64,000 nucleotides of DNA from Nitrospirales bacterium (GTDB lineage: Bacteria; Nitrospirota; Nitrospiria; Nitrospirales; UBA8639): NCBI GenBank assembly GCA_029261355.1, contig JAJDBM010000024.1:1-64000 (forward strand), in the 5' to 3' direction. How positions within the stretch are numbered: position 1 is the stretch's first letter; every line of letters starts with the position of its first letter. The notes below the pieces were generated by a model that had not been told where the DNA came from, did not search any database, and saw nothing but the letters and a program-made list of their open reading frames with translations. Below, one piece after another: positions 41,691 to 49,396 of this stretch. The position numbers and the translations under genes were made by a program.

Positions 41691-41895
41691 AAGATCACTC
41701 CAGCATTGGGGTTGCGTAATAGCTCAGCATAGCCGGAAACCTAGGGCTTTTCAAGAAGAATGGACCCTCTAAATAAGAGGTCGATCATATAATCTCACGA
41801 AAAATGCCAGATGGTCACAAAGAGAAGAAGATAAAGTGGCTAGCCTCTAAGAGATCTGAATTCTCTAGTTCATTTTAACGAATTTTATCTAGGGG
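41691..41895. other. 5' region of the aromatic operon
   Basis: An imperfect inverted repeat (GACCCTCT-AAATA-AGAGGTC) at 41763-41782 lies about 75-90 bp upstream of the pheA start. It may be an operator or leader hairpin. I could not identify a convincing -35/-10 pair. Confidence 0.35.
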
Positions 41896-42177
41896 TCATT
41901 TCTCATTTGGATGTGGAATCAAATCTGCATCCAGTTCTGCATTATATCTTTCGACTACTTTCTTGAAAGTCCCTGCATGGGTGCTTCTGGTGAACTCAAT
42001 ATATTCATTAGTTTGCTGTCATTCTCCTACAAAATTCGAATCAATACCCTCTTCGACTAAAAAGTGAGGGGTTTTGCCTAATATAACCAAGCACTCGAAA
42101 CTTGGCATTCGCACAGCTAACACATGTTCAGCACAGCTCAAAATCTCAGTAATCCTCTGCCTCGCACAAGAACTCAT
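41896..42177 (-). pseudogene. Broken small gene with one in-frame TGA
   Basis: On the minus strand a frame of 93 codons runs from ATG (42177) to TGA (41896-41898) with one internal TGA at 42019-42021. The part before it reads MSSCARQRITEILSCAEHVL and ends DSNFVGE; the part after starts QQTNEYIEFTRSTHAGTFKK and ends DLIPHPNEK. Both parts look coding in residue use. I do not recognise the family. A TGG-to-TGA (Trp) nonsense change would explain it; selenocysteine is possible but no SECIS hairpin was recognised. No ribosome binding site precedes the ATG. It lies downstream of speD on the same strand. Confidence 0.5.
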
Positions 42178-42305
42178 ATGGACAAAAAATTATGATTTCT
42201 CTCTATCTGGAAAATGTGTGTGAGGAGCTACTGGGAGAGAAGACTTTCGGCATTTCCCACAGGAATCCGACGATCTAGAACTGTGGACTGAACATCTTTA
42301 ACGGA

Positions 42306-42593
42306 CTAGGGGGCTAATACATGCTCAAGGACGTCCTCTAAATTGATTTCTGCATTACAGACAAACAAATCAAGAGAAAGATAGCTATGCTCGGGGTAGG
42401 TGTGAATCACACAATGAGATTCGGAAAGAACGAGGACTTTGGTGATGCCATGGGGGGTATATTCGTATTCACAATCTTTCACAACTGTAAATTCCCGTCG
42501 AATGACGTCCTCAATACTGGCCACCATTTGGCTGGTCGGCTTTTCATGCAGGGAAATATCGGCAATTAATAGACGTGATTGCGGTTCCATCAT
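42306..42593 (-). CDS. speD: SpeD-family S-adenosylmethionine decarboxylase-like proenzyme
   Basis: A 95-residue member of the bacterial SpeD family, which self-cleaves to create a pyruvoyl cofactor. The predicted cleavage is E58-S59 (LSESH). H64 (IHTYPE) and C79 (FVC) follow S59 by 5 and 20 residues, exactly the S63/H68/C83 spacing of Thermotoga SpeD. The protein stops about 30 residues earlier than typical SpeD. It begins just after the stop of the spermidine-synthase-like gene, so it should supply decarboxylated SAM for it. Some SpeD relatives decarboxylate ornithine or arginine, so the substrate is not certain. Start: ATG 42593 or the next codon. Confidence 0.85.
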   Translation of the reverse strand: MMEPQSRLLIADISLHEKPTSQMVASIEDVIRREFTVVKDCEYEYTPHGITKVLVLSESHCVIHTYPEHSYLSLDLFVCNAEINLEDVLEHVLAP

Positions 42594-42600
42594 TTTGTTC

Positions 42601-44142
42601 TCAATTCCAATATTTCCAGCCATCTAAGTAATACTGAAGAATTGTTGGATTATCTAACGAGCTAGGAAGAATATCGGCAACCATGAGATCCCTAGAAAAC
42701 CCAAAGAGGCCTTGTACATTGCCCGAGCCGACAAACCTCGTGGGAACTGTAATCGTGAGCGCATCCTTTGAAATAGGCACGTGCGAAGCAAGAATAAAAC
42801 CCCAGTCACCGAATGAAGGCACATAGGCATGGTAGGGTGCCACAAATGGAAATCCAGCTGTTTCCAACGTCTTATGAATGGACCAAAATGCCTGTTTAGC
42901 AAAAAATGGACTCGTCGACTGCGTCACAAAGATACCCTGTTTTGCCAAACGGCGCTTGGCCAATTTATAAAATTCTCTACTGTACAGTCGTGATAACCCT
43001 GAATTTTTTGGATCAGGTAAATCGGCAATAATGACATCAAAATAGTCCGTTCCTTCCAACAGATATTGATAGGCATCATGGTTGACCACTTTGATGCGTT
43101 CATCACCAAAACTTTCATGATTGATATGCCGAATCATCTCATGGGTCGAAGCCAATTCCGTCACGAGCGGGTCTAAATCGACAAGCGTAATAGCTTTCAC
43201 ATCGGCATACTTCAACACTTCCCGTGCCGCCAGTCCGTCCCCCCCGCCAAGGATCAAAATGTTCTCGCGATGCGAGGTCAGCCCCATGGGCACATGCACA
43301 AGGGCTTCATGGTAGCGATATTCATCAATGGATGAAAATTGAAGATTCCCATCTAAATAGAGGCGAACATCGTCCCGGTGTTTTGTAATCACTACTTTTT
43401 GATAGGTGGATTGTTGGGAATAAATAACACGATCTTCATAAATAGTGGTTTCCCAGGCATGAATGAGGCTTTGTGACCCCCAAAACATCCCCACCAGAAT
43501 AATCGCGGCGACCGAGGCCGCAATGGGAAGCATTCTCAAATTCCGAAGGTCAAGAATTGACCGAAAACACCAGAGAGTAAACATGCCGACCGCCACATTA
43601 AGTCCGCCAGCAATCAATGAGCTCTTAAAGATTCCAAAAAATGGGAGGAGAATGAATGGGAAAAGCAATGTCGCCGCAAAGGCGCCAAAATAATCGAGAG
43701 ATAAAACATTCGATATATTCGCTCGAAGGGCATAATGTTTTTCCATGATACGGGTCAGGAGGGGAATTTCTAACCCAATGAAAATGCCAATCACCAGAAT
43801 CAGGGACACCATGATGGGGTAATACATCGAGGTATAGGAATAGGCCGCAAACAACACGGGCACACTAAAGCCCCCGACCACCCCTAAGAGAATTTCAATC
43901 GTAATAAACCATCGCAGAAGATGCTCTTGAATATAGCGAGATAACAACGTCCCTATACCCATGGCAGTCATCGTCAGACCAATGGTGATAGAAAATTGCT
44001 TCACACTATCGCCGAGAAAATATGACGACACACTGCCAATCAACAGCTCATAGATAATCGTGCAAAGACCCACGACAAAAACGGTCATGAGAAGGACCGC
44101 AGATTCAAATGTCGGGGAAGGCGCGTGCGCCTTATTTTCCAC
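42601..44142 (-). CDS. Membrane-anchored spermidine-synthase-like aminopropyltransferase
   Basis: A 513-residue protein with about seven transmembrane helices in residues 10-210 followed by a cytoplasmic spermidine/spermine synthase domain (about 230-480). The SAM-type fold shows ILILGGGDGLAAREVL, VDLDPLVTEL and DVIIADLPDPKNSGLSRLYS, where classical SpeE has 'DSTDP'. The polyamine acceptor is unknown. It is followed by speD and preceded by small membrane proteins, DUF350, DUF4178 and PspA genes. Membrane-embedded aminopropyltransferases are known from PspA-linked operons, so a role in envelope stress is inferred. Confidence 0.88.
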   Translation of the reverse strand: MENKAHAPSPTFESAVLLMTVFVVGLCTIIYELLIGSVSSYFLGDSVKQFSITIGLTMTAMGIGTLLSRYIQEHLLRWFITIEILLGVVGGFSVPVLFAAYSYTSMYYPIMVSLILVIGIFIGLEIPLLTRIMEKHYALRANISNVLSLDYFGAFAATLLFPFILLPFFGIFKSSLIAGGLNVAVGMFTLWCFRSILDLRNLRMLPIAASVAAIILVGMFWGSQSLIHAWETTIYEDRVIYSQQSTYQKVVITKHRDDVRLYLDGNLQFSSIDEYRYHEALVHVPMGLTSHRENILILGGGDGLAAREVLKYADVKAITLVDLDPLVTELASTHEMIRHINHESFGDERIKVVNHDAYQYLLEGTDYFDVIIADLPDPKNSGLSRLYSREFYKLAKRRLAKQGIFVTQSTSPFFAKQAFWSIHKTLETAGFPFVAPYHAYVPSFGDWGFILASHVPISKDALTITVPTRFVGSGNVQGLFGFSRDLMVADILPSSLDNPTILQYYLDGWKYWN

Positions 44143-44392
44143 CTCTCACTCCGCCTCCACGATGATTGGGGCCACCCACACTTCCCGTTCTCACACTAGG
44201 ACCGTAGTACATAGGGGGTCCACCCCAATACATAAAAGATGGGCCAGAACGATACCCGTTATACCCCGTGTAGCCCCAACCTCGTTGTCCTAAATAGAAC
44301 GCCCCCATATAAACAACCCCTAGAATCAACAACATGGAAAGCAGCACTCCACCTCGTTGATTTCCCATTTCCCTCGAATGCTTATTCGGCAT
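44132..44392 (-). CDS. Small Gly/Tyr-rich membrane protein
   Basis: An 86-residue protein with one transmembrane helix (GGVLLSMLLILGVVYMGAFY) and a C-terminal tail rich in Gly, Tyr, Pro and Trp. The ATG at 44392 follows GAGGGG; a GTG six codons upstream is less likely. Its end overlaps the start of the spermidine-synthase-like gene by 11 bp, so the two are coupled. No family recognised. Confidence 0.65.
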   Translation of the reverse strand: MPNKHSREMGNQRGGVLLSMLLILGVVYMGAFYLGQRGWGYTGYNGYRSGPSFMYWGGPPMYYGPSVRTGSVGGPNHRGGGVRGGK

Positions 44393-44461
44393 ACCACCCC
44401 TCTTTGTCACAATCCACTCCTTGCCTTTGTCCCAACGATCAGTCTTTTATTCGAGCCCATG

Positions 44462-45058
44462 CTACCACTCATCATCAATCATCCTCGAGCGTCTATCCGT
44501 GGGAGCATTTTGGGCATTGACCCACATCCAAAGACCAACAGCTCCGATAAGAGACAGAATCCCCAAAATAAAATGGGCTAAGGAGCTTCCCTGCTTGGGC
44601 GTCACCTTCACCCTCACCGAACCCGCTCCAGAGGCATGGTTGGTCTCAATACTGAAACGAAGAAAGTACGCGCCTTTTTTGGGAAACGTGACCTTCAAGT
44701 CAAATGTCGTATCTTGCTCCGACCATGCATAGCCTTCATAATCACGACCAGATTCCTTCCAGAGCTCTTTTCCAAATCCGTACAGATATTCTTTTTGTTC
44801 ATCTAGTACTTCCCCTCCGACAAAGCTCCACACACCAGAGGCATTGAGTGTTTGTGCCACCGCAATACGGTACACCGAATAGTCCTCAGTCACTTCAATC
44901 GGACCCACATCTCCCCCTGACAGCGGAATCGTTTGCTCCACATTCTTCCCCACATCCATATTCAGGAAAAAAGAAGTGAGGAAACAAAGCCCAGCAAATG
45001 CCAGTAAGGCATAAGAAGCGTTGGTCCATTCCGCCAATTTTTCAGAATCGTGAGCCAT
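44462..45058 (-). CDS. Membrane protein of unknown function with extracytoplasmic beta domain
   Basis: A 198-residue protein with an N-terminal membrane helix (about 12-33), a beta-rich middle domain of about 120 residues (VYRIAVAQTLNASGVWSFV, GAYFLRFSIET) probably in the periplasm, and a C-terminal helix (about 163-183). I do not recognise the family. It lies 12 bp downstream of the DUF350 gene, inside the PspA-polyamine operon. Confidence 0.7.
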   Translation of the reverse strand: MAHDSEKLAEWTNASYALLAFAGLCFLTSFFLNMDVGKNVEQTIPLSGGDVGPIEVTEDYSVYRIAVAQTLNASGVWSFVGGEVLDEQKEYLYGFGKELWKESGRDYEGYAWSEQDTTFDLKVTFPKKGAYFLRFSIETNHASGAGSVRVKVTPKQGSSLAHFILGILSLIGAVGLWMWVNAQNAPTDRRSRMIDDEW

Positions 45059-45070
45059 GAGGAAAGGCCT

Positions 45071-45931
45071 TTAAAATTTCAAGTCGAAATCAATGGAAAA
45101 AAAGAGGATCACGGCGAAGGACACCGCCACAGTCATTTCCAATAAACCGACCGCCAAGTTCTGGTCGTGGGCAATGGCCTGATTCACATCAATTTTTGGC
45201 AAGAGAATCTTGTCTAATAACGTTCGAATGAGAGGAAGAAACAGCAGACCGCAGACCACACTGAGACCAAAACTCACTAAATTATACGGCCAACTTACAA
45301 AATCTCCCACCGCGCCCTTCATTAAAATTATGCCCAATGCCACTAACGTGCCCCCAAACGCGACCCCCGCCGAGACATTATTACGTTCGATTTCATCATG
45401 CACATTGAACGGCGTAATCCGGTCATAAAAAAACGTGAACGCAATTAACGCCACTTGACTCAACCCAAAAAAGGCAAGTGCCGTATGGACGCCCCCACCT
45501 TCCCCATGGATGGCACCGGCCACCACGAGCCCTGAGGCAATATAGGCACCAGCTTCAACTGCCCCAGCTCCGACATTTTGATCATCAACCAATTCTTTGA
45601 CGTTGCAAAACTTGCGCAAGAGGAATCGATCATTAATCACACGAGAAACATTCAACAAGGCAATACCGAAGAGGCCATAGCCCACAAACGCATAGAAGTC
45701 GTTGAGTAAATGTTGAGAAGGACCCACATGAGCGCCAATCAACACCATGATCACCGCGAACTGATACCCTGCCAGGCTCATGGCGACGGCCACATTTTTC
45801 TTGGGCCCAAGCTGTTCGTAGATACTGTAAGGCGTCAAAAAATCTTTAATGAACTTGGCCGCCACAAACAAACACACGGAAAGCCCAAGAAAGATCATGC
45901 CTTCAATGAATGCTCCTGAAAAAATATCCAT
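45071..45931 (-). CDS. DUF350 family membrane protein (tandem)
   Basis: A 286-residue integral membrane protein with seven or eight helices, made of two DUF350 units (about 10-140 and 145-280), each with a conserved 'NVAVAMSLAGYQ'/'NVSAGVAFGGTLVALG'-type helix. DUF350 proteins (YjfL in E. coli) occur next to PspA-like and polyamine-related genes, and their transport or signalling role is not established. It lies 14 bp after the DUF4178 gene. Confidence 0.85.
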   Translation of the reverse strand: MDIFSGAFIEGMIFLGLSVCLFVAAKFIKDFLTPYSIYEQLGPKKNVAVAMSLAGYQFAVIMVLIGAHVGPSQHLLNDFYAFVGYGLFGIALLNVSRVINDRFLLRKFCNVKELVDDQNVGAGAVEAGAYIASGLVVAGAIHGEGGGVHTALAFFGLSQVALIAFTFFYDRITPFNVHDEIERNNVSAGVAFGGTLVALGIILMKGAVGDFVSWPYNLVSFGLSVVCGLLFLPLIRTLLDKILLPKIDVNQAIAHDQNLAVGLLEMTVAVSFAVILFFSIDFDLKF

Positions 45932-45945
45932 ACCTAATTGGTGGG

Positions 45946-46581
45946 CTAGCTTAAACTGTAAACGGTGACTTGAGAGGGCTTGATCGTTTCGCTATAGCTC
46001 ACATCATAGGACCCATCGGTCCACTTTTCGACACCAATGAATTTCTTGCCGTTTTCAGCTTCGAAATCCCAATAATAAAATTTCTCCGCATTTTTATCAT
46101 CACTATAACGATAGAAGATGGCAGAATCGGAATCCTCCAACCAATAGGTCTGTCCTTCAAATTCGAATTTCCCTTCTTCATCATCATCCATTCGGATCAA
46201 ATCATCTTTGGACAAGCCAATATCCCTAAGCTTCAATTGACGGAGAGTAATTGCCAACTCAAGCTCATCATCTTCTTCCAGATCAATCCATACTTTTTCT
46301 TCGCCCTTGTCGCACTCCAGCTCATACCAACTCGACTCCCCTTCACGATAGGTATGCTTCGCGATGACCTTCAGGTCACAGTCGTCCATGTCCGACCCAA
46401 TACCCGTAAGCTGAATAACCGCCCCAGCCCCTACATTTTCTATACGCAGTTCGTCCTTGCTGTAGGGCTTAAACGGTTCCTTGGCCTTCAGTAAGGCCTC
46501 CTGCCCCTTTTGCTGATGTTGCCAAAAGAAATACCCGATTCCCGCAATCACGAGAAGAAGGATAAGCGTTGCAAATTCCAT
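45946..46581 (-). CDS. DUF4178 family membrane-anchored protein
   Basis: A 211-residue protein with one N-terminal helix (TLILLLVIAGIGYFFWQ) and a cytoplasmic beta-rich domain with the DUF4178 pattern: ENVGAGAVIQLTG, ESSWYELECDKGEEKVWIDLEEDDE, KFEFEGQTYWLEDS and FYYWDFE. The family is regularly encoded beside PspA, DUF350 and spermidine-synthase-like genes. The biochemical function is unknown. It is 11 bp downstream of the pspA-like gene. Confidence 0.85.
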   Translation of the reverse strand: MEFATLILLLVIAGIGYFFWQHQQKGQEALLKAKEPFKPYSKDELRIENVGAGAVIQLTGIGSDMDDCDLKVIAKHTYREGESSWYELECDKGEEKVWIDLEEDDELELAITLRQLKLRDIGLSKDDLIRMDDDEEGKFEFEGQTYWLEDSDSAIFYRYSDDKNAEKFYYWDFEAENGKKFIGVEKWTDGSYDVSYSETIKPSQVTVYSLS

Positions 46582-46592
46582 CGCGCGTCTCC

Positions 46593-47300
46593 TTACGACA
46601 TGCCCATTTTCTTTTTCAGTTCAGCCAGAGAGTCAGAGTGACTCGGGTTGACCTCACCAGCCAGCGCCTTATTAATTTCCGCATCAACATTGGTTTCCAA
46701 CATCGCCATTTCGCCATAGGACTCTGCAAGAGCTTCATCTTCCTGGACTTTGGATTTCATCTTTTCCAGCATCGAAATGGTGCTATCCGACCCAACGTTC
46801 GCCAATTGTTGATTCAGCTTTTTAGTGGCATTCGCCACCTTTGAACGTGCCCGAAGGGTGGTCAACTCGTTTTCCCACATACCAATCTGGGACTTTAATT
46901 TTTTGACATTCGCTTCAAGCTGAGCCACCATTTTATCCTGATTGCCAAGATTGGCCGAAACCGTTGTCGCTTGCTGAATAGCACTATCCTTTTTGCCTAA
47001 CGCTTCGCCAGCCAATCGATCAGCATCCGCCGCCGGCAAACTCCCTTTTTGCCCTTTTTCGAGGAGCAACATCGCCTTCCGCTCATAGTCTGTGGCTAGT
47101 TGTTTTTTCTCAGCCTGTTCCTTTTTGAGCTGAATGGTCAGAGCTTTGACTTCTGCCAAACTTTTCATGCTTCCTTCCAGATCTTTTTTTAAATCTCGAA
47201 TCCCTTGTTCGGTCATTTTAATCGGGTTTTCGAGCTTATCCATCGCCGAATGGGCTTCGGATTCTGCAACTTTAAACAGTCGTTTAAACACACCAAACAT
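46593..47300 (-). CDS. PspA/IM30 family membrane-stress protein
   Basis: A 235-residue, almost wholly helical coiled-coil protein of the PspA/Vipp1 superfamily, which binds and repairs damaged inner membranes by ESCRT-III-like assembly. The N-terminal MFGVFKRLFKVAESEAHSAM is the amphipathic membrane-binding helix. Long heptad regions follow, then a C-terminal SDSLAELKKKMGM. It resembles the YjfJ-type branch more than classical PspA. It is transcribed with a YbjN-like and a J-domain gene upstream and DUF4178-DUF350 downstream. No PspF-type regulator gene is nearby. Confidence 0.9.
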   Translation of the reverse strand: MFGVFKRLFKVAESEAHSAMDKLENPIKMTEQGIRDLKKDLEGSMKSLAEVKALTIQLKKEQAEKKQLATDYERKAMLLLEKGQKGSLPAADADRLAGEALGKKDSAIQQATTVSANLGNQDKMVAQLEANVKKLKSQIGMWENELTTLRARSKVANATKKLNQQLANVGSDSTISMLEKMKSKVQEDEALAESYGEMAMLETNVDAEINKALAGEVNPSHSDSLAELKKKMGMS

Positions 47301-47314
47301 TCCTCAGCCCTCCT

Positions 47315-47713
47315 TTATTCAGCTTTTGCCAAAGATATGAGTTCATCCACATTCTCGGCCATGGCCACACTCAAGGCATTGATCGAACCCTCAAGTTCAT
47401 TCAGATCGAGGTTTTCCAATTGTAAGGTATCTCGAAATAAGACCTTCGTCCCGGAATCATCGATGGCAAAGGCCCCATGAACTAAGGTGCGATTCAGTTG
47501 CAATAGCCGCTTCAGCATATTCACCTGTGGATCCTTCTTGATCTCAAAAATAAACTGTTCAAGAATAAGAATAGGATCTTCGCAATCAATCACCAAATGA
47601 TTGATCCCTTGGTCCTCATCATCGATCACCACAAGCTCTTGGCTTGGGTCTTCTTTGGTAATCGAAAACTCGAGTTCTTGAAGATAGGCTTTCACCTGTT
47701 CAAAATGCGTCAT
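47315..47713 (-). CDS. YbjN/CesT-like (type III chaperone fold) protein
   Basis: A 132-residue acidic protein. The pattern LLQLNRTLVHGAFAIDDSGTKVLFRDTLQLENLD matches the YbjN/CesT-like or DUF2170-type proteins often encoded beside PspA homologues. These small chaperone-like proteins are thought to bind partners, possibly PspA, but this is not shown. It lies 14 bp upstream of the pspA-like gene. Confidence 0.75.
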   Translation of the reverse strand: MTHFEQVKAYLQELEFSITKEDPSQELVVIDDEDQGINHLVIDCEDPILILEQFIFEIKKDPQVNMLKRLLQLNRTLVHGAFAIDDSGTKVLFRDTLQLENLDLNELEGSINALSVAMAENVDELISLAKAE

Positions 47714-47718
47714 GCGTT

Positions 47719-48069
47719 CTACACTCCTTTCCCCAACAGAGATTCGAAATAGTCCATAGCTTCATTTAACCGTTGCGCAATGGCATGAGCCATCTCCCGT
47801 TTTTTCAAATCCGTCGCATGAAAATCGGGATGATATTGTTTCATCAGTCGTTTATAGGATAAGCGAATGTCAGCAAGAGTCGCATGAGGGCCGACCTCTA
47901 AATTGGCGCGATACTGCTCTTCTTGTGATGACGAGGTCGTAGACGGAAAGTCCTCAGAACCATTCCGCGCATCAGAATGAGCAGAAGCCGACTGAACAGA
48001 ATCACCGCGAAAGGGAACATCGCCTAAATAACTCGTAACAATTCTACCAAAACGGCGAAAGAGCGACAC
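47719..48069 (-). CDS. J-domain (DnaJ-like) protein
   Basis: A 116-residue protein with a C-terminal J domain (about 58-112) containing the HPD motif (MKQYHPDFH) that stimulates DnaK ATPase. The N-terminal half is polar and Ser-rich. The GTG start at 48069 follows GAGGT. It is the first gene of the PspA-polyamine operon, suggesting that DnaK is recruited to the PspA system. Confidence 0.85.
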   Translation of the reverse strand: MSLFRRFGRIVTSYLGDVPFRGDSVQSASAHSDARNGSEDFPSTTSSSQEEQYRANLEVGPHATLADIRLSYKRLMKQYHPDFHATDLKKREMAHAIAQRLNEAMDYFESLLGKGV

Positions 48070-48845
48070 ACCATACCTCTACAAAGCAATTCGATAATGA
48101 AACATGCCCAGACACATCACGACCATCTTTCGCCCGACGATTCGGCGAACCTTGCAAGAGCAGCGTTGATGAATCAAAAGATACTAACAGAAGAACACTA
48201 AAGAACAAGAGCTTGGATATCGGCTCAAGTTGCAGGAAGTGACAAGATGACGTAAAGCATCAAGCATTTGAGTCGAATCAAAGGAACAACATGACGCGAA
48301 AGCCCAGCCAAGCGTCCCCTCTCTCTTGTGTCCGCCTACGTGGTCAACCTCGACCCAGAAAGCACACAATGGTCTGCCGCACTATAACGATCAAACGGAC
48401 ATCTCGCTATTCTCACATCTACCAAAATCAGGGTAGATGATTTTTCCGTCATTCCGATATTGTCATCGAAAAACCATCCTGGATCTTACCTACCGCACTC
48501 CATCACATTAAATATGCAAAGAACGTCTTCCACATTCGCCTTTATTGAATCAAGCATCGCCTAGGATAGGTCTCTGTTGCCGGGTCACACGCCCCGAGAA
48601 GCGAAACCGTTTTGCTTCTGCAAAAGGGAAACAAAAACATAACAAAACAACCTTAACGTTCCACCAAATTAGCCGACTAGAAATGGACAGCTCGAAACTG
48701 CATGCTTGGAATCCGATGTAACACTTTGGGGTAGTCGGATACATTTCCCCATAAATGTTGTACATGAATATGCCTGTAAAGCCTGGCGACACAAAACCTA
48801 ATCCTCACAGTATTACTTAAAGATGATTTCATCTGCCTTTTTTGT
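48070..48845. other. 776-bp intergenic region; no credible gene
   Basis: It precedes the J-domain/PspA operon, so it should contain that promoter. I searched by eye for a sigma-54 element, as many psp operons have, and saw none. A near-perfect hairpin (AGAAGCGAAAC...GTTTTGCTTCT) lies at 48598-48621. Short frames (48184-48369, 48550-48792, 48677-48862) lack ribosome binding sites and family features. A hairpin AGATG-ATTT-CATCT at 48821-48834 followed by T residues on the plus strand closes the region. Confidence 0.4.
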
Positions 48846-49346
48846 TTATCCCTCATGTTCAATTGGCATTAACTTGACTGTCCCTCCCAATAGTTTTTCA
48901 AAAGGTTCCTTAATAAACGTTTGTGACATTGGAATTGTTTTTAAGACCCGTTGAATATTGGCGTGATTACTACATCGTTGAGATAACTTTTCATCATTAA
49001 GATCAAATGGAGAGAAAACTACAGCCTTGTATCCGTCTTTCCAGATTGCAATATGGTGCATAGGTACAGGTAACCCTCCAGGGGCCGGCATGTAGACCCC
49101 CCACTCTCTTTTATTATCAAGGTGAAATTCCCTACCATTTTCGATTATTCCTTCTTCTAGAAATGGCTTAATGCATCTAAAATCATGTACATCAATAACA
49201 ATTCGTACATAGTGTATATTGACAAGTTCTTTCCCTGTTCGTGCATCGATAACCGTTATTTCTACTGGCATGACTGTTTCCAATGGAAAAACAAAGCAGC
49301 TTGTCGTACATAGAATCAAAACCAGTAAACCTAATAGTTTCACCAT
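48846..49346 (-). CDS. Putative lipoprotein of unknown function
   Basis: A 166-residue protein with a lipoprotein signal peptide ending LCTTSC, so it is probably membrane-anchored in the periplasm. The remainder shows beta strands (VEITVIDARTGKELVNIHYV) typical of a carboxypeptidase-regulatory-like or transthyretin-like fold, and I name no family. GGGAGGG just before ATG 49346 decides the start. The gene is more AT-rich than its neighbours and stands alone, which may point to recent acquisition. Confidence 0.7.
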   Translation of the reverse strand: MVKLLGLLVLILCTTSCFVFPLETVMPVEITVIDARTGKELVNIHYVRIVIDVHDFRCIKPFLEEGIIENGREFHLDNKREWGVYMPAPGGLPVPMHHIAIWKDGYKAVVFSPFDLNDEKLSQRCSNHANIQRVLKTIPMSQTFIKEPFEKLLGGTVKLMPIEHEG

Positions 49347-49396
49347 TTTCCCTCCCATGTAACACTATGCCATATTTGGTTACATTCAAATTGACG

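What the first reader, a model, noticed from the sequence alone, without database searches (positions are those of the whole stretch)
42306..48069. PspA-polyamine membrane-stress cluster led by a J-domain protein
Nine same-strand genes with small gaps: J-domain protein, YbjN/CesT-like, PspA/IM30, DUF4178, DUF350 (tandem), two small membrane proteins, a seven-helix spermidine-synthase-like protein, and SpeD. Combinations of PspA-like, DUF350, DUF4178 and aminopropyltransferase genes are known from comparative genomics but have no defined biochemistry. Here the decarboxylase and the J-domain cochaperone are also included, which suggests a complete unit: make a polyamine at the membrane, assemble PspA, recruit DnaK.
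Basis: partly seen in the sequence, partly recalled or inferred. Interest (0 to 1): 0.7.

Follow-up and report, generated by a model that had tools for sequence, protein, structure and literature searches.

The report
PspA operon with dedicated J-domain co-chaperone
A nine-gene membrane-repair operon, acquired as one block, contains a small helper protein that seems made to bring the cell's Hsp70 machine to the PspA membrane-repair scaffold; the polyamine part of the operon was already known, but this conserved helper appears not to have been described and could explain how bacteria take PspA scaffolds apart.

Summary
In detail: nine tightly packed minus-strand genes at 42306-48069. Seven (CesT/Tir-like, PspA, DUF4178, DUF350, two small membrane proteins, 7TM spermidine-synthase-like) match an operon type published in 2024; SpeD linkage is also known. 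The J-domain gene appears undescribed. Its protein belongs to a sharply bounded family: an N-terminal amphipathic helix resembling helix alpha0 of PspA/Vipp1, a variable linker, and a J-domain with HPD. In 117 Nitrospinota and Calditrichota genomes all 32 members lie directly upstream of CesT and PspA; in 394 genomes of a third phylum, 10 of 11 strong hits do, and the eleventh still neighbours PspA and SpeD. J and PspA distances correlate (r = 0.84). J also occurs without polyamine genes, so it belongs to CesT-PspA. The cassette was acquired horizontally as one block: two congeners keep the flanking genes but lack it, while another Nitrospirales genome carries it at 89% nucleotide identity. 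SpeD here, the genome's only copy, loses 25 C-terminal residues to a TAG, so 'complete polyamine unit' is doubtful in this strain. Best explanation: a PspA module with its own Hsp70 recruiter, analogous to chloroplast CDJ2-HSP70B-VIPP1, plus a known module aminopropylating an unknown acceptor.

The parts
47719..48069 (-). Small J-domain protein (116 aa): alpha0-like amphipathic N-terminal helix (about residues 2-18), disordered linker, J-domain with HPD (about residues 45-113), no zinc or C-terminal client domain
47315..47713 (-). CesT/Tir-like (YbjN-fold) chaperone, Pfam CesT_Tir_1
46593..47300 (-). PspA/IM30 (bacterial ESCRT-III), the only PspA in the genome
45946..46581 (-). DUF4178 protein with an N-terminal hydrophobic segment
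45071..45931 (-). Tandem DUF350 (YjfL-like) membrane protein
44462..45058 (-). 198-aa membrane protein: helix, about 120-residue beta-sandwich (probably extracytoplasmic), helix; no Pfam family; weak fold similarity to GOLD domains
44132..44410 (-). 92-aa protein with one hydrophobic segment and a Gly/Tyr-rich tail; conserved in seven-gene clusters
42601..44142 (-). 7TM-spermidine-synthase-like fusion (PRK03612); the transferase domain keeps GGGDG and the DLPDP aspartates; closest solved structure is a thermospermine synthase
42306..42623 (-). SpeD (class 1b AdoMetDC), catalytic E-S-H/H/C kept, C-terminus cut by TAG; only SpeD in the genome
42228..42305 (-). Same-frame continuation of SpeD after the TAG (25 codons and a stop), still recognisable against L056
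42152..48349 (.). Extent of the block shared with Nitrospirales OFTM42 (L056) at 89% nt identity and absent between the same neighbours in two congeners: the transferred cassette

Best explanation
The locus is a horizontally acquired PspA envelope-stress operon of the published CesT-PspA-DUF4178-DUF350-7TM/spermidine-synthase type, led by a dedicated J-domain co-chaperone. Proposed mechanism. PspA polymerises on stressed inner membrane through its alpha0 helix. CesT holds PspA (perhaps its alpha0 or N-terminal segment) in a non-polymerising form. The J protein docks at the same membrane patches or on the PspA polymer through its own alpha0-like helix, recruits DnaK through its HPD J-domain and drives ATP-dependent disassembly and recycling of PspA, as HSP70B-CDJ2 does for chloroplast VIPP1. 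The membrane-bound aminopropyltransferase, fed by dcAdoMet from SpeD where SpeD is intact, adds an aminopropyl group to an unknown acceptor that changes the envelope. Shown: gene content, conserved order and co-occurrence, family boundaries, alpha0-like helix, intact HPD, block transfer, SpeD truncation. Inferred: every physical interaction, the direction of DnaK action, and the acceptor.
For: J-family hits score 97-158 bits over the whole model and all other J proteins in the same 18 genomes score 48 bits or less, with one member per genome. In 77 Nitrospinota and 40 Calditrichota genomes, 32/32 hits are followed by CesT and (31/31 testable) PspA. In Nitrospinota all 26 J genomes carry PF22550; of four CesT-only genomes two are weak hits, one a fragment and one begins at the contig edge. 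In 394 further genomes 10 of 11 hits above 90 bits have the same order and the eleventh is PspA-DUF4178/PspC-J-SpeD. Distances correlate: J-CesT r 0.79, J-PspA r 0.84. HPD in 49/50. N-terminal helices are amphipathic (mean moment 0.55, shuffled 0.28), and a J N-terminus profile ranks cyanobacterial Vipp1 alpha0 above all 1589 background N-termini. J occurs without polyamine genes. HSP70B/CDJ2 assembles and disassembles VIPP1 (PMC10602608). Block transfer.
Against: No experiment here or in the literature found. Most CesT-PspA loci lack J, and about 20 loci have an RCK K+ channel gene upstream of CesT, usually where J is missing, so J is optional. The alpha0 resemblance is a short amphipathic match and could be convergent. 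AlphaFold gave low confidence to the N-terminal helix. L209 has HQD and one of the 50 aligned members, L123, also lacks HPD. J could serve CesT or another client rather than PspA.
Confidence: 0.55

Rival explanations
1. The J protein serves CesT, not PspA: J and CesT form a holdase/transfer pair that hands membrane-protein clients (DUF350, the 7TM synthase) or PspA subunits to DnaK during assembly, with PspA merely the scaffold.
For: J is nearly always immediately next to CesT, typically about 12 nt apart. CesT-type folds are peptide-binding chaperones (Pfam names; BacA structure in PMC10948618). J-CesT distances correlate.
Against: J-PspA correlation is at least as strong (0.84 against 0.79). 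L209 keeps J next to PspA with no CesT within 1.5 kb. The J N-terminus resembles PspA alpha0.
Confidence: 0.25
2. The operon is mainly an envelope-modification pathway: SpeD plus the 7TM aminopropyltransferase make an aminopropylated lipid or other acceptor, and PspA/CesT/J only protect the enzyme complex.
For: Published clusters without PspA keep the polyamine genes (PMC11237479). SpeD follows the synthase in many Bacteroidota clusters. Catalytic motifs of both enzymes are conserved.
Against: SpeD is truncated here and is the genome's only copy. Many CesT-PspA and J-CesT-PspA loci lack the polyamine genes.
Confidence: 0.15
3. The J gene is a bystander: an ordinary DnaJ-like gene that happens to be first in the operon.
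For: J is missing from most CesT-PspA loci.
Against: 43 of 43 strong hits in 511 genomes, 35 of them outside the model's seed set, lie next to CesT and/or PspA; there is a clean score gap to other J proteins.
Confidence: 0.03

Closest known systems
CesT/Tir-PspA operon group 2 of Ravi et al. 2024 (PMC11237479), Shewanella AAN56744-AAN56747
   Same: CesT/Tir-PspA dyad, DUF4178, 8TM DUF350 and 7TM-spermine/spermidine-synthase fusion in one operon; an extra uncharacterised envelope protein
   Different: That paper's text contains no DnaJ, J-domain, Hsp70 or CDJ2; here a J-domain gene leads the operon and SpeD ends it; the 198-aa protein is TM-beta-TM, not an obvious lipoprotein
AdoMetDC / MFS-spermidine-synthase / DUF350 clusters (Li et al. 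2019, Biochem J, cited in PMC11237479; content recalled, paper not held)
   Same: speD next to a membrane-fused spermidine-synthase domain and DUF350
   Different: SpeD here has lost its C-terminus; PspA, CesT and J are added
Chloroplast CDJ2-HSP70B-CGE1 acting on VIPP1 (Liu et al. 2005, 2007; PMC10602608)
   Same: A dedicated J protein that hands a PspA-family ESCRT-III protein to Hsp70
   Different: Homology between CDJ2 and this family beyond the J-domain was not tested; here the PspA-like element is an alpha0-like N-terminal helix and the pair is linked by operon; no biochemistry yet
E. coli yjfIJKLMC and Pseudomonas bac operons (DUF2170/CesT-like BacA next to a PspA-like protein; PMC10948618; yjf gene content partly recalled)
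   Same: CesT-fold protein next to a PspA homologue in a multi-gene operon, linked to biofilm in Pseudomonas
   Different: Different CesT subfamily (DUF2170); no J-domain gene is described in the passages read

Membership tests
Group-2 CesT/Tir-PspA operon (Ravi 2024) | CesT/Tir-PspA dyad adjacent | tested here: met
Group-2 CesT/Tir-PspA operon (Ravi 2024) | DUF4178 and DUF350 genes in the operon | tested here: met
Group-2 CesT/Tir-PspA operon (Ravi 2024) | Spermine/spermidine-synthase domain fused to an N-terminal 7TM domain | tested here: met
   (PRK03612, residues 4-512)
Group-2 CesT/Tir-PspA operon (Ravi 2024) | Lipoprotein with Ctha_1186 domain | tested here: inconclusive
   The 198-aa and 92-aa proteins match no Pfam or NCBIfam family and show no obvious lipobox
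J-domain co-chaperone | J-domain fold with HPD | tested here: met
J-domain co-chaperone | Stimulates DnaK ATPase | not testable with these tools
   needs biochemistry
PspA-linked J family proposed here | Full-length match including the N-terminal helix, separated from other J proteins | tested here: met
PspA-linked J family proposed here | Genomic linkage to CesT-PspA in genomes not used to build the model | tested here: met
   35/35 non-seed strong hits next to CesT and/or PspA
CDJ2 (VIPP1 J protein) | Direct binding to PspA/VIPP1 and control of its oligomeric state | not testable with these tools
   inference only
CDJ2 (VIPP1 J protein) | Sequence homology outside the J-domain | not tested
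   no CDJ2 sequence was compared
Functional SpeD (AdoMetDC class 1b) | Pyruvoyl Ser, His and Cys of the active site | tested here: met
   residues as named in PMC10407285
Functional SpeD (AdoMetDC class 1b) | Full-length domain | tested here: not met
   36 residues after the pyruvoyl Ser, against 62 in L056 and 41 or more in the other cluster SpeDs; TAG inside the Pfam match
Spermidine synthase | dcAdoMet site and catalytic Asp pair | tested here: met
Spermidine synthase | Makes spermidine from putrescine | not testable with these tools
   needs an assay

The most novel reading that the evidence does not exclude
A widespread, previously undescribed bacterial system in which an Hsp70 chaperone, recruited by a J protein whose N-terminus mimics PspA's own membrane-binding alpha0 helix, disassembles a bacterial ESCRT-III polymer: a functional counterpart of Vps4, with CesT as the subunit holdase.
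Probability: 0.35. Interest if true: 0.82.

Novelty: new variant of a known kind. Interest (0 to 1): 0.6.

Why it matters
Eukaryotic ESCRT-III needs the ATPase Vps4 for disassembly. For PspA/Vipp1 only chloroplast HSP70-CDJ2 has a described role, and how the polymers assemble and disassemble is described as poorly understood (PMC11520248, PMC13051332). A J protein genetically tied to PspA across several phyla, carrying an alpha0-like helix, gives a concrete candidate and a simple reconstitution test. It also separates the chaperone part of these operons from the polyamine part.

Tried and rejected
A search of 148 Nitrospirota genomes with the J protein alone gave mostly ordinary DnaJ, so a profile built from linked homologues was used. 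Viral contigs encode no close PspA relative; one plasmid carries a CesT relative. A sigma-70 promoter and terminator scan was at chance level. The upstream region is only patchily conserved among four genomes and no promoter was assigned. No direct or inverted repeats of 10 nt or more were found at the cassette borders, so the transfer mechanism is unknown. Foldseek of the 198-aa model gave only weak beta-sandwich matches. An altered putrescine pocket was considered but not claimed, because the P-S-F/Y motif also occurs in thermospermine synthases.

Full report
OBSERVATION. Nine minus-strand ORFs run from 48069 down to 42306 with gaps of 51 nt or less or short overlaps. Pfam and NCBIfam confirm the named families. 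The second gene is CesT_Tir_1 (PF22550) rather than YbjN proper. The genome has one PspA, one SpeD and seven DnaJ-domain genes.

WHAT WAS ALREADY KNOWN. Ravi et al. [quoted passage not shown] 2019; not held). They already propose that PspA-based membrane dynamics is coupled to polyamines or to aminopropylation of other substrates. The words DnaJ, J-domain, Hsp70 and CDJ2 do not occur in that paper, and no held paper combines PspA, CesT and DnaJ. The J gene is therefore the part that looks new.

DISTRIBUTION OF THE CORE. In 246 Nitrospirota genomes only five carry CesT_Tir_1. Three class-level relatives have the same seven genes in the same order, with an RCK-type K+ channel gene where the window has J and, in the two whose contigs continue, without SpeD next to the synthase. 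A scan of 84,980 species genomes with a CesT alignment gave 75 loci. PspA is found beside CesT in 74, DUF4178 in 50, the synthase in 41, DUF350 in 40, SpeD in 15 and the complete seven-gene core in nine. SpeD follows the synthase in many Bacteroidota clusters, so its presence here is not exceptional.

THE J FAMILY. In 18 of the 75 loci a small J protein (mostly 110-136 aa) lies directly upstream of CesT, in genomes labelled Nitrospirota, Nitrospinota, Syntrophobacteria, Trueperaceae, Calditrichota, Chloroherpetonaceae, Latescibacteria, Bacteroidetes and Chloroflexi. Aligned, they share an N-terminal helix (M-x-x-F/I-x-R-I/L-x-x-I/V-x-R-A-N/E), a variable linker and a J-domain with the signature YYANLE...AWKRLMKKYHPDLH. 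A profile of the family separates cleanly: 97-158 bits for one member per genome, 48 bits or less for all other J proteins. AlphaFold models the J-domain confidently; the helix and linker have low confidence.

LINKAGE TEST. In 77 Nitrospinota genomes 26 carry the family and 30 carry CesT_Tir_1; all 26 are among the 30. Of the four CesT-only genomes two matches are weak, one is a fragment, and one begins 79 nt from the contig edge, where an upstream J gene could not be seen. In 40 Calditrichota genomes six carry it. All 32 hits have CesT immediately downstream, and PspA follows in all 31 where the contig continues. In 394 genomes of a third phylum, 10 of 11 hits above 90 bits have the same order; the eleventh (L209) lies in PspA - DUF4178+PspC - J - SpeD order. 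In sum 43 of 43 strong hits, 35 of them outside the seed set, neighbour CesT and/or PspA. Mantel correlations are 0.79 (J-CesT), 0.84 (J-PspA) and 0.88 (CesT-PspA), partly reflecting shared species history. J occurs in loci with no synthase nearby (L070, L078, L079, L090), so it belongs to the CesT-PspA module.

ALPHA0-LIKE HELIX. J N-termini have a mean hydrophobic moment of 0.55 against 0.28 for shuffles. A position-specific profile of 43 J N-termini scores two cyanobacterial Vipp1/PspA N-termini (sequences as printed) at 23.5 and 32.5, above every one of 1589 background N-termini, and all 105 PspA proteins from the loci exceed the 99th percentile. This may be common descent of the helix or convergence. 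In PspA, alpha0 is the helix required for membrane engulfment (PMC12358876).

BLOCK TRANSFER. Two genomes of the same genus have tyrA-aroF-hisC-pheA and FAD-oxidoreductase-panB-folD in the same order without the cluster. The window matches the cluster contig of Nitrospirales OFTM42 (L056) only from 42152 to 48349, at 89% nucleotide identity, with the genes at 86-93%, whereas pheA of the same genome pair is 73% identical. All nine genes therefore moved as one unit. No border repeats were seen.

SPED. The pyruvoyl serine, histidine and cysteine are kept, but a TAG ends the protein 25 codons before the same-frame stop. In L056 that position is a sense codon, and the Pfam match continues through the TAG. 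Whether the shortened enzyme works is unknown.

MECHANISM. [quoted passage not shown] The simplest reading is that this J protein directs DnaK to PspA. The alpha0-like helix would place it on the same membrane patches, or let it compete for the same CesT surface. This is inference; the report claims only the genetic linkage, family definition, helix resemblance, block transfer and SpeD truncation as shown.

Noticed in passing
42228-42308: In-frame TAG in speD with 25 recognisable codons after it; the only speD of the genome. Possibly a recent loss of dcAdoMet synthesis.
   Followed up: yes
L210:1489-1869, L211:1489-1863, L212:1360-1809, L213:1483-1851, L214:1483-1884: A second set of small J proteins (54-72 bits) with the same kind of N-terminal helix, several with an ELRRIIEEL-like motif; not next to PspA. 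In L210, L212, L213 and L214 a sigma-54 activator without an obvious receiver domain (PspF-like by eye) lies nearby, in L210, L213 and L214 with a rhodanese-like gene.
   Followed up: partly
L209:1501-1866 (and L123): L209 has HQD instead of HPD in the J-domain, beside a DUF4178-PspC fusion; L123 also lacks the HPD string (HQD by a loose pattern match).
   Followed up: partly
L059, L060, L064-L068, L071-L076 and others: An RCK-type K+ channel gene lies just upstream of CesT-PspA in about 20 loci, usually where J is missing; L076 has channel - J - CesT. Possible ion or voltage input to the PspA system.
   Followed up: partly
L078:9086-9616, L083:2951-3484, L087:4995-5633: In Nitrospinota a DUF2617 gene lies directly upstream of J; DUF2617 is otherwise listed in polyamine/DUF350 operons (PMC11237479).
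   Followed up: partly
44462-45058: 198-aa protein with a confident TM-beta-sandwich-TM model; best Foldseek match is the p24 GOLD domain (E 2.6e-5, TM-score only 0.34 on the query), so only a fold-level hint.
   Followed up: partly
41710-42150 and 48350-49390: The same intergenic site holds different unrelated ORFs in two congeners (L197, L198), so the pheA-oxidoreductase interval looks like an insertion-prone spot.
   Followed up: partly
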